From DASVDK01 sp036381125 [NCBI: Thermodesulfobacteriota bacterium] (GTDB lineage Bacteria; DASVDK01): a stretch of 7,956 bases of DNA. The notes under the pieces are model-generated. The model was not told the origin of the DNA and did not search any database. It saw only the letters and a list, made by a program, of their open reading frames with translations. The stretch lies in NCBI GenBank assembly GCA_036381125.1, contig DASVDK010000088.1:1-7956 (forward strand), read 5' to 3'. Shown piece by piece: positions 177 through 7,956 of this stretch (within the stretch, counting starts at the first letter, position 1; each line of letters starts with the position of its first letter). The position numbers and the translations under genes are program-made.

Positions 177-190
177 GGAGTCTCCATCAA
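175..190 (-). promoter_or_regulatory. Ribosome binding site and dyad over the YihY-family start codon
   Basis: On the minus strand the sequence TTGATGGAGACTCCATG carries a GGAG Shine-Dalgarno core (182-185) five bases before the ATG. The same bases form a perfect 6-bp dyad, ATGGAG-A-CTCCAT (175-187). As RNA it could fold as a 5-bp stem with a GAC loop that would pair the ribosome site with the start codon. The symmetry is seen directly; a regulatory role is inference. Confidence 0.45.
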
Positions 191-306
191 CGGCTCGCGG
201 CCGCCGTCCGCTCCGCCCGGGGTGAACCCGGGCTCCGCTCCACGCGGGCCTGCGGCCCGCTCCAGACCGGGGGCCGCTCGCCTCGCTCGGCGGCTCCGCC
301 GCCTCG
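186..306. repeat. Composite hairpin repeat, unit I (most complete copy)
   Basis: This 121-bp unit opens with a 26-bp head (186-211, starting ATCAACGGCTCGCGG) that recurs exactly at 307-332. Then come fixed module 1 (217-241), variable segment A (242-265), fixed module 2 ACCGGGGGCCGCTCGCCTC (266-284) and variable segment B (285-306). Module 1 overlaps a perfect hairpin at 215-233 (GCCCGGG, loop GTGAA, CCCGGGC). Segment A is a 7-bp hairpin at 244-260 (GCGGGCC, loop TGC, GGCCCGC). Segment B is a 6-bp hairpin at 289-303 (GGCGGC, loop TCC, GCCGCC). Module 1 recurs exactly at 461-485 and module 2 exactly at 512-530. Nothing here looks protein-coding. The element type is not one I can name. Confidence 0.8.
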
Positions 307-335
307 ATCAACGGCTCGCGGCCGCCGTCCGCGCC
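307..335. repeat. Composite hairpin repeat, unit II (head only, truncated)
   Basis: Positions 307-332 are identical over 26 bp to the head of unit I (186-211). Three bases later a new head begins at 336, so this copy holds only the head and lacks both modules and both hairpins. It looks like a partial duplication or the remnant of a deletion. Confidence 0.75.
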
Positions 336-460
336 ATCAACGGCGGGCAGGCTGCCGTCCGCTCCGGCCGGGGCAAGCCCGCGCTCCGCTCCTCCGGGGC
401 TTCGCCCCGGACCCACACCCGGAGGCCTGCCCGCCTCAGCGGCCGCTACGCGGCCGCCCG
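336..460. repeat. Composite hairpin repeat, unit III (diverged copy)
   Basis: The unit starts ATCAACGGCGGGCAGG and aligns with the unit I head and module 1 over about 56 bp with one 1-base indel and scattered substitutions. Module 1 is at 368-392 and its own hairpin is degraded to about 4 bp. Segment A (393-416) is a perfect 8-bp hairpin at 393-411 (TCCGGGGC, loop TTC, GCCCCGGA). Module 2 is diverged and two bases longer (417-437). Segment B (438-460) is an 8-bp hairpin at 439-457 (GCGGCCGC, loop TAC, GCGGCCGC). The stems share no obvious sequence with those at the same places in units I and IV, but all are perfect inverted repeats. Confidence 0.75.
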
Positions 461-571
461 CCGGGGTGAACCCGGGCTCCGCTCCTCGGCGCGCCGCTCG
501 GCGCGCCCACCACCGGGGGCCGCTCGCCTCTACCGGCGCTCCCGCGCCGGGCGGCAACGGCTCGCGAGCCG
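461..571. repeat. Composite hairpin repeat, unit IV, plus trailing palindrome
   Basis: Module 1 (461-485) matches unit I 25/25 and module 2 (512-530) matches 19/19. Segment A (486-511) forms a hairpin at 488-507 (GGCGCGCC, loop GCTC, GGCGCGCC). Segment B (531-554) forms a hairpin at 533-550 (CCGGCGC, loop TCCC, GCGCCGG). It is followed by a third copy of CAACGGCTCGCG (555-566; also at 188-199 and 309-320), here part of a 14-bp perfect palindrome CGGCTCGCGAGCCG (558-571). This copy lacks the full head in front of module 1. Confidence 0.78.
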
Positions 572-701
572 AGCAAGCCCCGTGCCAGGCCGGCCCGGGC
601 CGCGCGCCGCCTGCCGAGCGTAACACCGGCAGGTCCAGTGCCGCGCGTCCGTTTCCCGCACCGGGCCGCCCTGGCCGGAGCGCCCGCCGCGCCGGGGCCC
701 T
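572..701. other. Non-coding DNA between the repeat array and the receptor gene
   Basis: Apart from the inverted repeat at 610-633 (listed separately) and the 12-bp palindrome CGGCCCGGGCCG at 591-602, I see no gene, promoter or RNA in this stretch. On the minus strand it is the 3' flank of the receptor gene. No T-rich run follows any stem, so a classical intrinsic terminator cannot be called. Confidence 0.5.
610..633 (-). terminator. Candidate transcript-end hairpin downstream of the receptor gene
   Basis: A 7-bp perfect inverted repeat (CCTGCCG at 610-616 and CGGCAGG at 627-633, 10-base loop) lies about 70 bp past the receptor stop codon in the direction of transcription. It has no following T tract, so it is at best an atypical terminator or an RNA 3'-end-stabilising stem. 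Its place at the end of the operon is the main argument. Confidence 0.25.
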
Positions 702-3869: not shown

Positions 3870-5599
3870 GCCGCCGCCATGTCGCCGGCCAGGGCGAGGA
3901 GCCCGAGCACGTCGGCGATGAGGACGAGCTCGCCGCTGCCGAGCAGGCTCGCGCCGGCGATGCCGCGCACCGGCTGCGGCAGCCGGGCCAGGTAGGGCCC
4001 GAGCGCCTTCAGGACCGTCTTGTCCTTGCCGCAGACCTCGTCGACGAGGAAGCCGACGCGCCGGTCGCCGTGCCGCACCACCACGACCGGCACCGGCGCG
4101 GTGTCGGGCAGCGCGCCCGACTCCGGCGCGCCGAGCGGGAGGGCGAGCGGCATCACCGGGATCGCCTGCCCCCTGAGCAGGTGGACCCGCTGGTGCCCGA
4201 CGATCTGGAACTCCCTGGGCGCCACCCGGATCGTCTCCTCCACGTACGTGAGCGGGAGGCCGTAGAGCCGCCCCGCCACGCGCACGAGGAAGATCTGGAT
4301 CATGGCGAGCGTGAGCGGGACGCGGAGCGTGAACGTGGTGCCCTGCCCGACCTGCGTGGCCAGCTCCACCGTGCCCCCGAGCCCCTCGACGGCGGTGCGC
4401 ACGACGTCGAGCCCGACGCCCCGGCCGGAGATGCGGTCGACCCGGTCGGCGGTCGAGAAGCCCGGCGAGAAGATGAGGCGCCGGACCGCCTCGGGCGTGA
4501 GCGGCGCCTCCGCGTCGGCCGCGGAGAGGAGCCCGCGCTCGGCCGCACGGCGCCGGACCGACGCCTCGTCGATGCCGCGTCCGTCGTCGGAGACCTCGAT
4601 GACCACGTGGTCCTGCGCGTGCCGCGCCGCGAGCCGCACGCGGCCGGTCGCCGGCTTGCCCGCGGCGGCGCGGGCCTCCGCCGGCTCGATGCCGTGGCCG
4701 ATCGCGTTGCGCACGAGGTGGACGACCGGGTCGTGGACCGCCTCGACGATCGCCTTGTCGAGCTCCGTCGCCTCCCCCTCGAGCTCGAGCACCACCGGCT
4801 TGCCCGCCTCCCGCGCGGTGTCGCGCACGAGGCGATGGAACTTCTGGAAGAGCGTCCGGATGGGGACCATCCGGATGGAGAGGACCTCGCCCTGGAGCTG
4901 GTCCGCCAGCCGGGAGAGGCCGGCCGCGACGTCCTCCAGCTCCCGGTGGTGCGTGCGGCGCGAGAGGCTCGCAAGCTGCGACCGGCTCGCCATCAGCTCC
5001 CCGACGAGGTTCACGAGCCGATCGAGCCGGGCCGTCGAGACGCGGATGGTGTCGCCGTCGCGGCCGCGGCGGCCGTCGGCCGCGGCGCGGTCGGCCGGCG
5101 CCGGCTCGGCGCCGGCCGCGACGGCCGGATCGTCCGGCGCCCCCCGGGACCACCCGGCCGCCGGCGCCGCCGCGGCCTCCCCGGCGCCGGCGTGCAGCGC
5201 CTCGAACCGGGCGAGCAGCGACTCCAGCTCGGCGGTGAGCCGGCCGGCGTCCCCGCCCGGCTGGCCCGGCGCGGCCGAGGCGAGCAGCATCCGGCAGGCG
5301 TCGAGCCCGCGCAGCAGGAGGTCGAGGAGGTCCGGACCCGAGGCGAGCGAGCCGTCGCGCACGCGCCCGAGGACGTTCTCCATCGAGTGCGCCAGGGTCG
5401 CCAGGGTCTCCATCCCCATGAACCCGGCGTTCCCCTTGAGCGAGTGCGCCGCGCGGAAGACGCGGTGCAGGACGTCGCGGTCGTCCGGCCGCTGCTCGAG
5501 CAGCACCAGGTCGCGCGCGACCGCGTCGAGCAGCTCTCGGCTCTCGTCGAGGAACTCGCCGTAGAGGCCGGTCAGGTCGGGCTGTCCCGCGTCCGTCAT
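3866..5599 (-). CDS. cheA: CheA: chemotaxis sensor histidine kinase (P1-P3-P4-P5, no P2)
   Basis: The central kinase: it autophosphorylates on a histidine under receptor control and passes phosphate to the receiver protein and CheB. The 577 residues contain: HPt/P1 about 8-130 with phosphohistidine H52 (AAHSLKGNAGFMG); an Ala/Pro/Gly-rich linker about 137-182; dimerisation P3 about 183-247 (LDRLVNLVGELM); ATPase P4 about 248-428 with N box (LVRNAIGHGIE, 295-305), G1 (SDDGRG, 337-342), F box (IFSPGFSTA, 377-385) and G2 (GRGVGLDVV, 392-400); and CheW-like P5 about 429-570. No P2 response-regulator-docking domain fits in the short linker, so it is shorter than E. coli CheA. One oddity: the N box usually reads NAIDHG, and here the Asp is Gly301. 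ATG at 5599 lies nine bases after the cheY stop, with only a weak purine-rich ribosome site. TGA at 3866-3868 overlaps the mini-ORF ATG. Confidence 0.98.
   Translation of the reverse strand: MTDAGQPDLTGLYGEFLDESRELLDAVARDLVLLEQRPDDRDVLHRVFRAAHSLKGNAGFMGMETLATLAHSMENVLGRVRDGSLASGPDLLDLLLRGLDACRMLLASAAPGQPGGDAGRLTAELESLLARFEALHAGAGEAAAAPAAGWSRGAPDDPAVAAGAEPAPADRAAADGRRGRDGDTIRVSTARLDRLVNLVGELMASRSQLASLSRRTHHRELEDVAAGLSRLADQLQGEVLSIRMVPIRTLFQKFHRLVRDTAREAGKPVVLELEGEATELDKAIVEAVHDPVVHLVRNAIGHGIEPAEARAAAGKPATGRVRLAARHAQDHVVIEVSDDGRGIDEASVRRRAAERGLLSAADAEAPLTPEAVRRLIFSPGFSTADRVDRISGRGVGLDVVRTAVEGLGGTVELATQVGQGTTFTLRVPLTLAMIQIFLVRVAGRLYGLPLTYVEETIRVAPREFQIVGHQRVHLLRGQAIPVMPLALPLGAPESGALPDTAPVPVVVVRHGDRRVGFLVDEVCGKDKTVLKALGPYLARLPQPVRGIAGASLLGSGELVLIADVLGLLALAGDMAAA
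5063..5118. repeat. Long perfect hairpins inside the cheA linker-coding region
   Basis: Positions 5092-5118 form a perfect 12-bp inverted repeat (CGGCCGGCGCCG, loop GCT, CGGCGCCGGCCG). Just beside it, GCCGCGGC occurs at 5063-5070 and again at 5079-5086, giving an 8-bp stem with an 8-base loop. Both fall in the DNA for the low-complexity linker between the HPt and dimerisation domains of CheA (the 12-bp hairpin covers about residues 161-169, AGAEPAPA-type sequence). Stem composition and the 3-base loop resemble the intergenic hairpins at 215-571. Confidence 0.7.
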
Positions 5600-5984: not shown

Positions 5985-6789
5985 ACGCCTTCTCGTACAC
6001 GAGACCGCCCTTCACGCTTCGGATCTGGAACGGCACGCGCGAGATGTCGATGGTCTCGGCGCCGCCCATGAGGAGCAGGCCCCACGGCGCGAGCACGCGG
6101 TGGAACGCCTGCGCCGCGGCGAGCTTGGCGGCGTCCGACAGGTAGATGAAGACGTTTCGGCACACGATCAGGTCCTGCTCCGGCACCGCGGCCAGCGCGT
6201 CGGGGTCGGCGAGGTTGAGCTGCCGGTACGCGATCTGCGCGGCGTACTGGGGCTTGAGCCGGTAGCCGCCCCCCTCCTCGACGAAGAACCGCGCCCGGCG
6301 CGCCTCGCTCACCCCGCGCATGCGATGGGCCGGGAAGCGCGCCCCGCGCGCCGTCTCGAGCGCGCGGGCCGAGATGTCGGTCGCCAGGATCTCCACCGGG
6401 CCGAGCACCCGCTCGGCCAGGAACATCGCGAGCGTCGCCGGCTCCTCGCCGGTGGCGCAGGCCGCGCTCCAGGCCCGGAACGGCCTCGGGTGCCCGTTGC
6501 GCACCGCGGCGAGCACGGGGAGCGCGTCGACGAGGACCTCGAACTGCTCGGGCGATCGGAAGAAGCTCGTCTCCTGCACCGTCAGGAGGTCCACGAGCGC
6601 CTGCAGCTCCGCCTCGCCGTCGGGGCTGTACTTGAGGAAGTAGTAGTAGTCGCGGGCCGAGGCGATGCGCCGCGCCTTGAGCCGCTCGCCGACGCGCGCG
6701 TCGAGGTAGTCGACCCGGTTGTCGCGGACGTGGATGCCGGTGCGCTCGCAGACGTAGTCGCGCAACGCCGCGAACTCCTCGAACGTCAT
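5983..6789 (-). CDS. cheR: CheR: SAM-dependent chemoreceptor glutamate methyltransferase
   Basis: Methylates specific receptor glutamates using S-adenosylmethionine; cytoplasmic, the counterpart of CheB in adaptation. The 268 residues show the all-alpha N-terminal domain (about 1-75, ending in QETSFFRSPEQF) and the Rossmann-type SAM domain: WSAACATGEEP (107-117, with E115), ATDISARALE (136-145, with D138), the small beta subdomain about 159-193, and VCRNVFIYL (209-217, with N212). There is no TPR or other C-terminal extension. Motif I is a little unusual: the Tyr that normally follows GEEP is Ala118. The start is ATG 6789 (MTFEEFAAL), the usual CheR beginning; the same frame stays open far upstream but only inside the HEAT gene. 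The ATG overlaps the HEAT-gene TGA as ATGA, which indicates translational coupling. Stop is TAG at 5983-5985. Confidence 0.97.
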   Translation of the reverse strand: MTFEEFAALRDYVCERTGIHVRDNRVDYLDARVGERLKARRIASARDYYYFLKYSPDGEAELQALVDLLTVQETSFFRSPEQFEVLVDALPVLAAVRNGHPRPFRAWSAACATGEEPATLAMFLAERVLGPVEILATDISARALETARGARFPAHRMRGVSEARRARFFVEEGGGYRLKPQYAAQIAYRQLNLADPDALAAVPEQDLIVCRNVFIYLSDAAKLAAAQAFHRVLAPWGLLLMGGAETIDISRVPFQIRSVKGGLVYEKA

Positions 6790-7956
6790 TGGCGCGCCCC
6801 GGTTCGCTCGAGCGCCAGCTCGGCCGCCCGGCGCGCCGACGGGTGCGGGTCGTCGAGGAGCGCCGCCAGCGCGTCCTGCGCCGAGGTCTCCGCCCGCCGC
6901 CCCAGCGCCGTGGCGGCCGCCGTCCGCACCTTCCAGGAGACGTCGCCGAGCGCCGATACCAGCGCGCCGAGCACGGCGTCCCCGGAGAGCCGCCCCACCG
7001 CCTCGACGACCGCCTCGCGGACGTCCTCGTCCGGATCGGCGGCCAGCGCGAGGAGAGGCCCGACCGCCTCGGCGTCCCTGAGTTCGCCCAGCGCGCGGGC
7101 GGCCGCGAGCCGCACGGCCCCGACCGGGTCGGCCAGCGCCTCGCGCAGCGCCGGCGCGCCGCGGCGGTCGCCGATGGCGCCGATCGCGCGAGCCGCCTCG
7201 TACCGGACCCAGGGGTCGGCGTCGCGCAGCGTGAGGCGAAGCGGCTCGAGGGTCCGCGGATCGCCCAGCTCGCCGAGCACGGCGGCGGCCGAGCGCCTGA
7301 GCACCGGGTCTTCCGAGCCGAGGAGCATGAGCGGCAGCGACCCGACCTCGTCCTCGTCGAAGACCGCCAGGGCGAAGACGGCGGCCTGCCGCACCTCGGG
7401 CCGCGCTGCGTAGAGCAGCCGCTTCAGGGGCTCGACGGCCCGCCGGTCGTGAATGCGCGAGAGCGCCTCGATCGCCGAGCGGACGTCGCCCCCCTCCGGG
7501 TCCTCGAGGCGGCCGAGCAGGAGGTCGACGACGCCGGGGAACCGGCCGCACTGCGCGACCGCGTCGACGGCGGCCTGCCGCACCCGCTCGGCGGGGTCGC
7601 GGAGCGCCGGCAGGAGCGCCTCGACGACCTCGGGCGTGTCCAGCTTGCCGAGGGCGCGCACCGCCTCGGCCCTGAGGTCGTCGTCCCCCTCCGCCTCGCC
7701 GGCCGGGTCGGCCAGGTCCGCGAGGCGGCGGCGGCAGGCCGCGAGCCGCGCCTCGCCCGCCGCGAGCGCGGCGAGCCGCCGCGCGGCCGGCGCGCCGGAG
7801 GCGAGAAGGTCCTCGATCGCGGCCGCGGCCGCGCCGCCGGGGTCGCGCCGGGCCAGCGCCGACAGCTCGAGCGCCGAGACCCGCCCGTGGTCGTCCTCCG
7901 CGGGGCTCTCGGGCGGGGCCGCGTCGTCGGCGACCAGGCCCGCCAGGGCCGGGACC
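6786..7956 (-). CDS. HEAT-repeat (PBS-lyase-like) protein, C-terminal part (5' end beyond right edge)
   Basis: The frame is open from the right edge to TGA at 6786-6788, giving 389 visible residues. From about 7670 downwards there are nine to ten helical repeats of about 31 residues with the phasing 'VRxxAAxALGxLGDxxAVxPLxxLLxDPxxx', for example VRYEAARAIGAIGDRRGAPA, LRRSAAAVLGELGDPRTLEP and VRLAAARALGELRDAEAVGP. The upstream 98 codons are more degenerate, Ala/Leu/Arg-rich and acidic, but still look helical. A GTG at 7661 is not a credible start, since it sits inside a repeat (LRAEAVRALGKL). HEAT solenoids are protein-interaction scaffolds; no catalytic motif is seen. The ATGA overlap with cheR and the shared operon suggest a chemosensory partner or localisation role. 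HEAT-like proteins are known from some other che clusters (as I recall, Myxococcus Che7). The specific function is unknown. Confidence 0.9.
   Translation of the reverse strand, partial: VPALAGLVADDAAPPESPAEDDHGRVSALELSALARRDPGGAAAAAIEDLLASGAPAARRLAALAAGEARLAACRRRLADLADPAGEAEGDDDLRAEAVRALGKLDTPEVVEALLPALRDPAERVRQAAVDAVAQCGRFPGVVDLLLGRLEDPEGGDVRSAIEALSRIHDRRAVEPLKRLLYAARPEVRQAAVFALAVFDEDEVGSLPLMLLGSEDPVLRRSAAAVLGELGDPRTLEPLRLTLRDADPWVRYEAARAIGAIGDRRGAPALREALADPVGAVRLAAARALGELRDAEAVGPLLALAADPDEDVREAVVEAVGRLSGDAVLGALVSALGDVSWKVRTAAATALGRRAETSAQDALAALLDDPHPSARRAAELALERTGARQ

What the first reader, a model, noticed from the sequence alone, without database searches (positions are those of the whole stretch)
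186..571. Composite repeat in which fixed modules alternate with hairpins of changing sequence
Three units (I 186-306, III 336-460, IV 461-554) share the order module 1, segment A, module 2, segment B. Modules 1 and 2 are identical between units I and IV (25/25 and 19/19 bp). Segments A (24, 24 and 26 bp) and B (22, 23 and 24 bp) differ in sequence in every unit, yet each is a perfect inverted repeat: stems of 7, 8 and 8 bp for A, and 6, 8 and 7 bp for B, with 3-4 base loops. Conserved linkers with non-conserved but self-complementary inserts suggest that structure, not sequence, is kept, as in a structured RNA, a protein-binding cruciform array or a mobile palindromic element. Extreme GC makes short palindromes common, so chance must be tested.
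Basis: partly seen in the sequence, partly recalled or inferred. Interest (0 to 1): 0.62.

Follow-up and report, generated by a model that had tools for sequence, protein, structure and literature searches.

The report
Intergenic array of perfect, shifting hairpins
Between two genes of an unidentified very GC-rich bacterium lies a short stretch of repeated units whose hairpins stay well paired although their letters change, with loops of one particular kind on one strand; the pattern is real, probably a repeat kept palindromic at the DNA level, but its function could not be tested.

Summary
Modules 1 and 2 are identical between units I and IV at 217-241/461-485 and 266-284/512-530. All six A/B segments carry perfect stems of 6-8 bp; their summed length is 44 bp against a mean of 24.3 and a maximum of 35 in 5000 dinucleotide shuffles. 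The array lies in the 525-bp, 82% GC gap between an MCP gene and a BrkB/YihY gene, is not coding by base composition, and reaches no Rfam gathering score.

New here: on the minus strand all four 3-nt loops are GNA (GCA, GAA, GGA, GTA) and one of the two 4-nt loops is GNRA. Such triloops are about 4% per orientation in shuffles and in GC-rich control DNA. The stems of the three units differ at 13 compared pairs.

Best reading: a tandemly duplicated, BIME-like palindromic repeat kept palindromic at the DNA level, most likely by fold-back template switching. A minus-strand RNA is a close rival; REP-type hairpins lack the REP tetranucleotide. No relative was found in the viral, phage, plasmid and genome-collection searches made. 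The window's own genome is not held, so the covariation test on other genomic copies could not be run.

The parts
177..701 (.). Intergenic region, 82% GC, downstream of the MCP gene and upstream of the BrkB/YihY start (both on -)
   Evidence: base composition by codon position flat, 0.84/0.80/0.80, for 626-177 in the BrkB frame
186..306 (-). Unit I (121 bp): head ATCAACGG, outer stem arm, module 1 hairpin, hairpin A, module 2, hairpin B
307..335 (-). Unit II: head-only fragment, 94% identical with the start of unit I over 303-335
   Evidence: family D3
336..460 (-). Unit III (125 bp), diverged
461..554 (-). Unit IV (94 bp), without head
555..571 (-). Remnant of a further unit end (CAACGGCTCGCG...), containing the loopless 14-bp palindrome 558-571
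217..241 (.). Module 1, identical copy at 461-485
461..485 (.). Module 1, second identical copy; diverged copy 369-392
266..284 (.). Module 2, identical copy at 512-530
512..530 (.). Module 2, second identical copy
244..260 (-). Hairpin A of unit I, 7 bp, minus-strand loop GCA
289..303 (-). Hairpin B of unit I, 6 bp, minus-strand loop GGA
393..411 (-). Hairpin A of unit III, 8 bp, minus-strand loop GAA
439..457 (-). Hairpin B of unit III, 8 bp plus one flanking G-U pair, minus-strand loop GTA; its arm continues the unit-end sequence GGCGGCCGCG
488..507 (-). Hairpin A of unit IV, 8 bp, minus-strand loop GAGC (the exception)
533..550 (-). Hairpin B of unit IV, 7 bp, minus-strand loop GGGA (GNRA)
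342..435 (-). Outer stem of unit III: 342-352 with 425-435, 11 perfect pairs, enclosing module 1 and hairpin A
   Evidence: p 0.0002
192..282 (-). Weaker outer stem of unit I: 12 of 15, placed by eye at 192-206 with 268-282
   Evidence: p 0.03; longest perfect run not significant, p 0.45

Best explanation
A tandemly duplicated, composite palindromic repeat in an intergenic gap, comparable in layout to BIME-type elements. Units of about 120 bp arose by local duplication and partial loss (shown by the identical modules). Their hairpins diverge in sequence but are returned to perfect pairing at the DNA level, most likely when a nascent strand folds back on a stable GNA minihairpin and copies its own arm (fold-back template switching, inferred). 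The minus-strand GNA loops are then the fold-back points, and the paired stems need not be selected for. Any present function, such as holding the RNA between the MCP and BrkB genes in stable hairpins, would be secondary (inferred, untested).
For: Perfect stems far beyond chance. All 4 triloops are GNA on the minus strand and all six A/B loops are closed by C-G; composition-matched shuffles give the + strand form TNC in 81 of 2018 and GNA in 45 of 2018 triloop hairpins, and 1.2 Mb of control DNA gives 81 of 966 for both orientations together. GCGNAGC occurs 7 times on the minus strand of 177-571 and never on the plus strand, shuffle mean 0.97, maximum 6 in 3000; 3 of these 7 are tips of stems of 6-8 bp, against 0 of 17 elsewhere in the window. 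Two unit ends look rewritten by fold-back: 439-457 extends the unit-end GGCGGCCGCG by its own reverse complement, and 558-571 turns CGCGAGCCG into a loopless palindrome, where units I and II are not palindromic. Template switching is known to make imperfect palindromes perfect, with a strand bias (PMC7202029, passages), and is proposed to create and maintain hairpin stems (PMC8794818, abstract and first part of Results). GNA loops are called very stable in PMC6479982 (passages), which cites Yoshizawa 1997 on extraordinarily stable DNA minihairpins; of that paper I saw only the reference.
Against: In control DNA from four genomes of the phylum of Kitasatospora, GC-GNA-GC tips are not extended more often than other GC-NNN-GC tips (7 of 2033 against 254 of 33376 at 6 bp or more), so no general fold-back effect of GNA is seen there. 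Only one locus was available, so common descent of the loops cannot be separated from repeated events. The GNA test was chosen after seeing the loops. Four of the seven GCGNAGC lie in repeated linkers and are not independent. Hairpin A of unit IV has a GAGC loop. The absence of G-U pairs inside the stems is no evidence, because stems were searched as Watson-Crick runs, and hairpin B of unit III does go on with one G-U pair.
Confidence: 0.37

Rival explanations
1. A structured RNA or leader on the minus strand: each unit folds as hairpin B followed by an outer stem that encloses hairpin A and the module 1 hairpin, and the array acts as leader, stabiliser or terminator region between MCP and BrkB.
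For: Both flanking genes are on the minus strand and the array ends 9 bases before the BrkB ATG. Units I and III fold better than shuffles, z -2.25 and -3.63. Outer stem of unit III 11 bp perfect, p 0.0002. GNA and GNRA loops are on the strand of the genes. One stem goes on with a G-U pair.
Against: No Rfam match at gathering score, and only sub-threshold ones at E 0.2 and 0.69. The module 1 hairpin fails in unit III, where the predicted fold instead pairs it with hairpin A. Outer stem weak in unit I and its head arm missing in unit IV. No promoter-like or T-tailed terminator-like site in 100-800 (consensus scan only).
Confidence: 0.28
2. REP-type or other single-strand mobile hairpins (TnpA-REP or a relative) that accumulated in this gap.
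For: The group 3 REP of S. maltophilia is a 23-nt element with an 8-bp perfect stem and 3-nt loop (GCT) whose first G is needed for cleavage, while block changes of the stem had no drastic effect (PMC8266576, Introduction and S. maltophilia section); here stems of 6-8 bp with G-first 3-nt loops occur on one strand.
Against: No common tetranucleotide (GTAG) before the stems: the minus-strand 5' flanks are TCTGGA, TGTGGG, GTGGTG, GATCGA, CGGCGG, TGCCGC. No copy in the collections searched. Dispersed copies and a transposase could not be looked for in the genome.
Confidence: 0.18
3. A CsrA/RsmA-type decoy RNA with GGA in linkers and loops.
For: 16 GGA on the minus strand of 177-571 against 3 on the plus strand.
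Against: GGA excess not significant against dinucleotide shuffles (mean 11.9, p 0.07), A.GGA once, as expected; no CsrB-type match in the Rfam searches.
Confidence: 0.03
4. Chance palindromes in extreme GC, or a translated N-terminal extension of BrkB.
For: The BrkB frame has no stop through the whole gap.
Against: Stem sum unreached in 5000 shuffles; flat base composition by codon position against 0.66/0.38/0.95 in the BrkB fragment; unit lengths 121, 29, 125, 94 shift the frame.
Confidence: 0.02

Closest known systems
REP/BIME elements with TnpA-REP (group 3 REPs)
   Same: Intergenic, clustered, short perfect palindromes; the S. maltophilia REP has a 3-nt loop beginning with G and only one strand is recognised (PMC8266576, Introduction and one Results section)
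   Different: No GTAG tetranucleotide, loops all point the same way, stems differ in every unit, no transposase or dispersed copies demonstrable
Hairpins made or maintained by template switching (quasipalindrome correction)
   Same: Perfect stems of arbitrary sequence, changes on both arms, strand bias (PMC7202029, passages; PMC8794818, abstract and part of Results)
   Different: Here several hairpins with a shared loop type inside a tandem composite repeat; a shared GNA loop is not in the parts of those papers that I saw
Repetitive hairpin-forming elements of sponge mitochondria
   Same: Hairpin repeats in intergenic DNA (PMC2800124, search listing only)
   Different: Mitochondrial; not compared in sequence

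Membership tests
[quoted passage not shown]
   5' flanks of the six A/B stems share no tetranucleotide
REP element (TnpA-REP type) | High copy number in intergenic regions of the genome | not testable with these tools
   Own genome not held
REP element (TnpA-REP type) | tnpA-REP gene in the genome | not testable with these tools
   None among the seven window proteins scanned with Pfam; genome not held
BIME | REPs in inverse orientation separated by linkers, often tandem | tested here: not met
   Tandem units with linkers, but five of six A/B loops read GNA or GNRA on the same strand, so orientation does not alternate
Known structured RNA (Rfam 15) | Match above a family's gathering score | tested here: not met
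   0 matches in the window; best sub-threshold match in 150-720 20.6 bits against 41.2 needed
Structured RNA in general | Covariation across independent copies or species | tested here: inconclusive
   Only three units of one locus: 13 pair differences within stems located as perfect runs; no relatives found
Intrinsic terminator | G+C-rich hairpin followed by a T run | tested here: not met
   0 sites in 100-800
Template-switch-maintained palindrome | Ancestral imperfect palindrome becomes perfect in a descendant | tested here: inconclusive
   Suggested at 439-457 and 558-571 by comparison with units I and II; no outgroup

The most novel reading that the evidence does not exclude
A class of self-writing DNA hairpins: GC-GNA-GC seeds on one strand fold back during replication and prime copying of whatever lies upstream, so that perfect hairpins of ever-changing sequence grow at fixed places between conserved linkers, without transposase and without selection on an RNA.
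Probability: 0.13. Interest if true: 0.7.

Novelty: new variant of a known kind. Interest (0 to 1): 0.4.

Why it matters
Compensatory changes are usually read as proof of a selected RNA structure. If an array like this is kept perfect by a DNA-level process with a loop signature, it offers a natural case, and a sequence criterion (loop type, strand, whole-arm replacement), for telling mutational maintenance of stems from selection.

Tried and rejected
Own-genome copies: not held. Pattern for module 1 (CGGGGNNANCCCGNGCTCCGCTCC): 0 in viral contigs; 1 in genome contigs, in Kitasatospora, where by eye no hairpin array surrounds the match and one frame is open through it, taken as chance. This spent the single genome-contig scan; a protein query there would probably have served better to reach relatives. 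Other viral contigs patterns: 1 hit inside an ORF, 0, 1 hit inside a 1091-aa ORF, and 29 hits for a 16-base core. Around those 29, non-overlapping stems of 6 bp or more numbered 5 in L094 (a collagen-like reading frame), 3 in L083, 2 in L074 and L097, and 0 or 1 in the other 25; none looks like this array. Distant DNA search: 1 plasmid hit (46 bp in an annotated oxidoreductase gene) and 1 phage-labelled hit in a record without annotation (77 bp, 75.9%), where I read 501 bases and saw no module. A local BLAST of 177-571 against the loci held at that time gave six short matches (24-79 bp) at E 0.003 or below: L006, L007, L029, L082 and two control stretches, L056 and L061; I did not pursue the last two. 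Protein searches of viral contigs: 1 distant relative (36%) for the MCP, 0 for the HEAT-repeat protein.

Host: CheA reaches at most 44% identity among the listed matches in 198 genomes of the phylum of Kitasatospora, 50 of which have a match at 1e-70 or better; the MCP matches 49 of 60 such genomes, the best at 39-42% over the C-terminal half. That phylum (Actinomycetota; name recalled) is therefore unlikely. Rokubacteria came to mind from GC content, but the reported range is 64-71% (PMC5712423, passages) against 75% here; this stays a guess.

Coding extension of BrkB, CsrA decoy and T-tailed terminators rejected as given under rivals. A general fold-back bias of GNA tips was looked for in control DNA and not found. 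I lowered the best explanation from 0.42 to 0.37 and the novel case from 0.15 to 0.13, and raised the RNA rival from 0.25 to 0.28 for that reason; interest went from 0.42 to 0.40. Literature: seven searches showed no description of such an array in their listings; this is no proof of absence.

Full report
Setting. The window carries, all on the minus strand, a HEAT-repeat protein, CheR, a response regulator, CheA, CheB, an MCP (702-2663) and the first 58 codons of a BrkB/YihY protein (ATG at 176). The finding lies in the 525-bp gap 177-701 between MCP and BrkB, 82% GC against 75% for the window. The gap has no stop in the BrkB frame, but its GC by codon position is flat (0.84/0.80/0.80 over 626-177) while the BrkB fragment shows 0.66/0.38/0.95 and CheA 0.81/0.49/0.98, and the unit lengths shift the frame, so it is not protein-coding by these signs.

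Anatomy. Units begin with ATCAACGG at 186, 307 and 336, with a remnant at 555. Unit I (186-306) and unit III (336-460) are complete, 307-335 is a head alone, and unit IV (461-554) lacks the head. In the minus-strand sense a complete unit reads: hairpin B, outer stem arm (in module 2), hairpin A, linker, module 1 hairpin, linker, outer stem arm, GTTGAT. The outer stem is good in unit III (11 perfect pairs, p 0.0002 against shuffled arms) and weak in unit I (12 of 15 at the best register, p 0.03; longest perfect run 6, p 0.45) (my hand comparison of unit I in that call was out of register and gave 6 of 16).

Chance. Six perfect A/B stems sum to 44 bp; 5000 dinucleotide shuffles give mean 24.3 and maximum 35, and 20000 sets of windows from 721 onward give maximum 33. 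Single segments have p from 0.0006 to 0.059. The module 1 hairpin has p 0.007 in unit I, 0.08 in IV and 0.66 in III. Folding energies: unit I z -2.25 and unit III z -3.63 as minus-strand RNA, 177-571 z -3.94 as plus-strand DNA.

What changes and what stays. Arms of the same segment compared from the loop outward agree at 28 of 41 positions over six unit comparisons, or 22 of 35 without the closing pair, where about 50% is expected by composition. They may thus be diverged homologues. The 13 differing positions are paired in both units, but the stems were located as perfect Watson-Crick runs, so this and the lack of G-U inside them follow in part from the search; the informative fact is that such runs exist at the same place in every unit. 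Beyond the perfect runs hairpin B of unit III goes on with one G-U pair and the other five stems stop at a mismatch. The counts are pairwise and not independent.

Loop signature. On the minus strand the loops are GCA, GAA, GAGC (segment A of I, III, IV) and GGA, GTA, GGGA (segment B): 4 of 4 triloops are GNA and 1 of 2 tetraloops is GNRA; all six are closed by C-G. Among triloop hairpins of 6 bp or more in 3000 shuffles of the region, 81 of 2018 have the + strand form TNC and 45 of 2018 GNA. In 1.2 Mb of control DNA from four genomes of the phylum of Kitasatospora (920 kb of it from one genome, G024; 64-74% GC in the first 400 kb) 81 of 966 have either form: 63 of 788 in long ORFs and 18 of 178 outside. 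Taking 4% per orientation, four of four in one orientation has a chance of about 5 in a million (my arithmetic, after the fact, loops assumed independent). The heptamer GCGNAGC lies 7 times on the minus strand of 177-571 and 0 times on the plus strand (shuffle mean 0.97, maximum 6 of 3000); 3 of the 7 are tips of stems of 6-8 bp and 4 lie in linkers with a 2-bp stem; outside the array 0 of 17 exceed 4 bp. In the whole window the heptamer is not enriched: 24 against 21.4 expected.

Traces of fold-back. Units I and II end in GGCGGCCGCGAGCCGTTGAT. At the IV/III junction the same ten bases GGCGGCCGCG are followed by TA and the reverse complement GCGGCCGC, which makes hairpin B of unit III. At the remnant, CGCGAGCCG has become the loopless palindrome CGGCTCGCGAGCCG at 558-571. 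Both look like an arm copied back on itself; without an outgroup the direction is inferred. Loopless palindromes of 12 or more bases are also found 14 times in the other 7255 bases, so the second case alone is weak.

Mechanism. Template switching at imperfect inverted repeats turns them into perfect ones, and a strand bias is reported (PMC7202029, passages). It has been proposed to create stems and maintain their pairing (PMC8794818, abstract and first part of Results). GNA loops are called very stable in PMC6479982 (passages), which cites Yoshizawa 1997 for DNA minihairpins. Together these give a simple account of perfect stems of changing sequence with a fixed loop type on one strand. Against it, GNA tips in the control DNA are not extended more often than other tips (7 of 2033 against 254 of 33376), so if the mechanism is real it is not a general property of GC-rich genomes. 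A functional minus-strand RNA is the main rival; REP-type hairpins the next, since the S. maltophilia group 3 REP has an 8-bp perfect stem and a 3-nt loop whose first G matters (PMC8266576), but the REP tetranucleotide is missing.

Relatives. None found: module patterns in viral contigs and genome contigs, distant DNA search of plasmids and phages, and the Rfam searches gave only matches that I take as chance, or sub-threshold ones. The genome contigs pattern was exact and fairly strict, so diverged copies in related species would have been missed. The host was not identified; its CheA reaches at most 44% among the listed matches in the phylum of Kitasatospora.

Verdict.

Noticed in passing
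window 5092-5118: A 12-bp perfect hairpin with loop GCT inside the CheA coding sequence, in the stretch between the Hpt and dimerisation domains.
   Followed up: no
window 610-633: A 7-bp inverted repeat with a 10-base loop (cctgccg...cggcagg) about 70 bases after the MCP stop, without a T run; read by eye.
   Followed up: no
window 591-602: Loopless 12-bp palindrome CGGCCCGGGCCG between the array and the MCP gene.
   Followed up: no
window 6786-7955: A protein of HEAT/PBS-lyase-type repeats lies directly upstream of cheR in a chemotaxis cluster.
   Followed up: no
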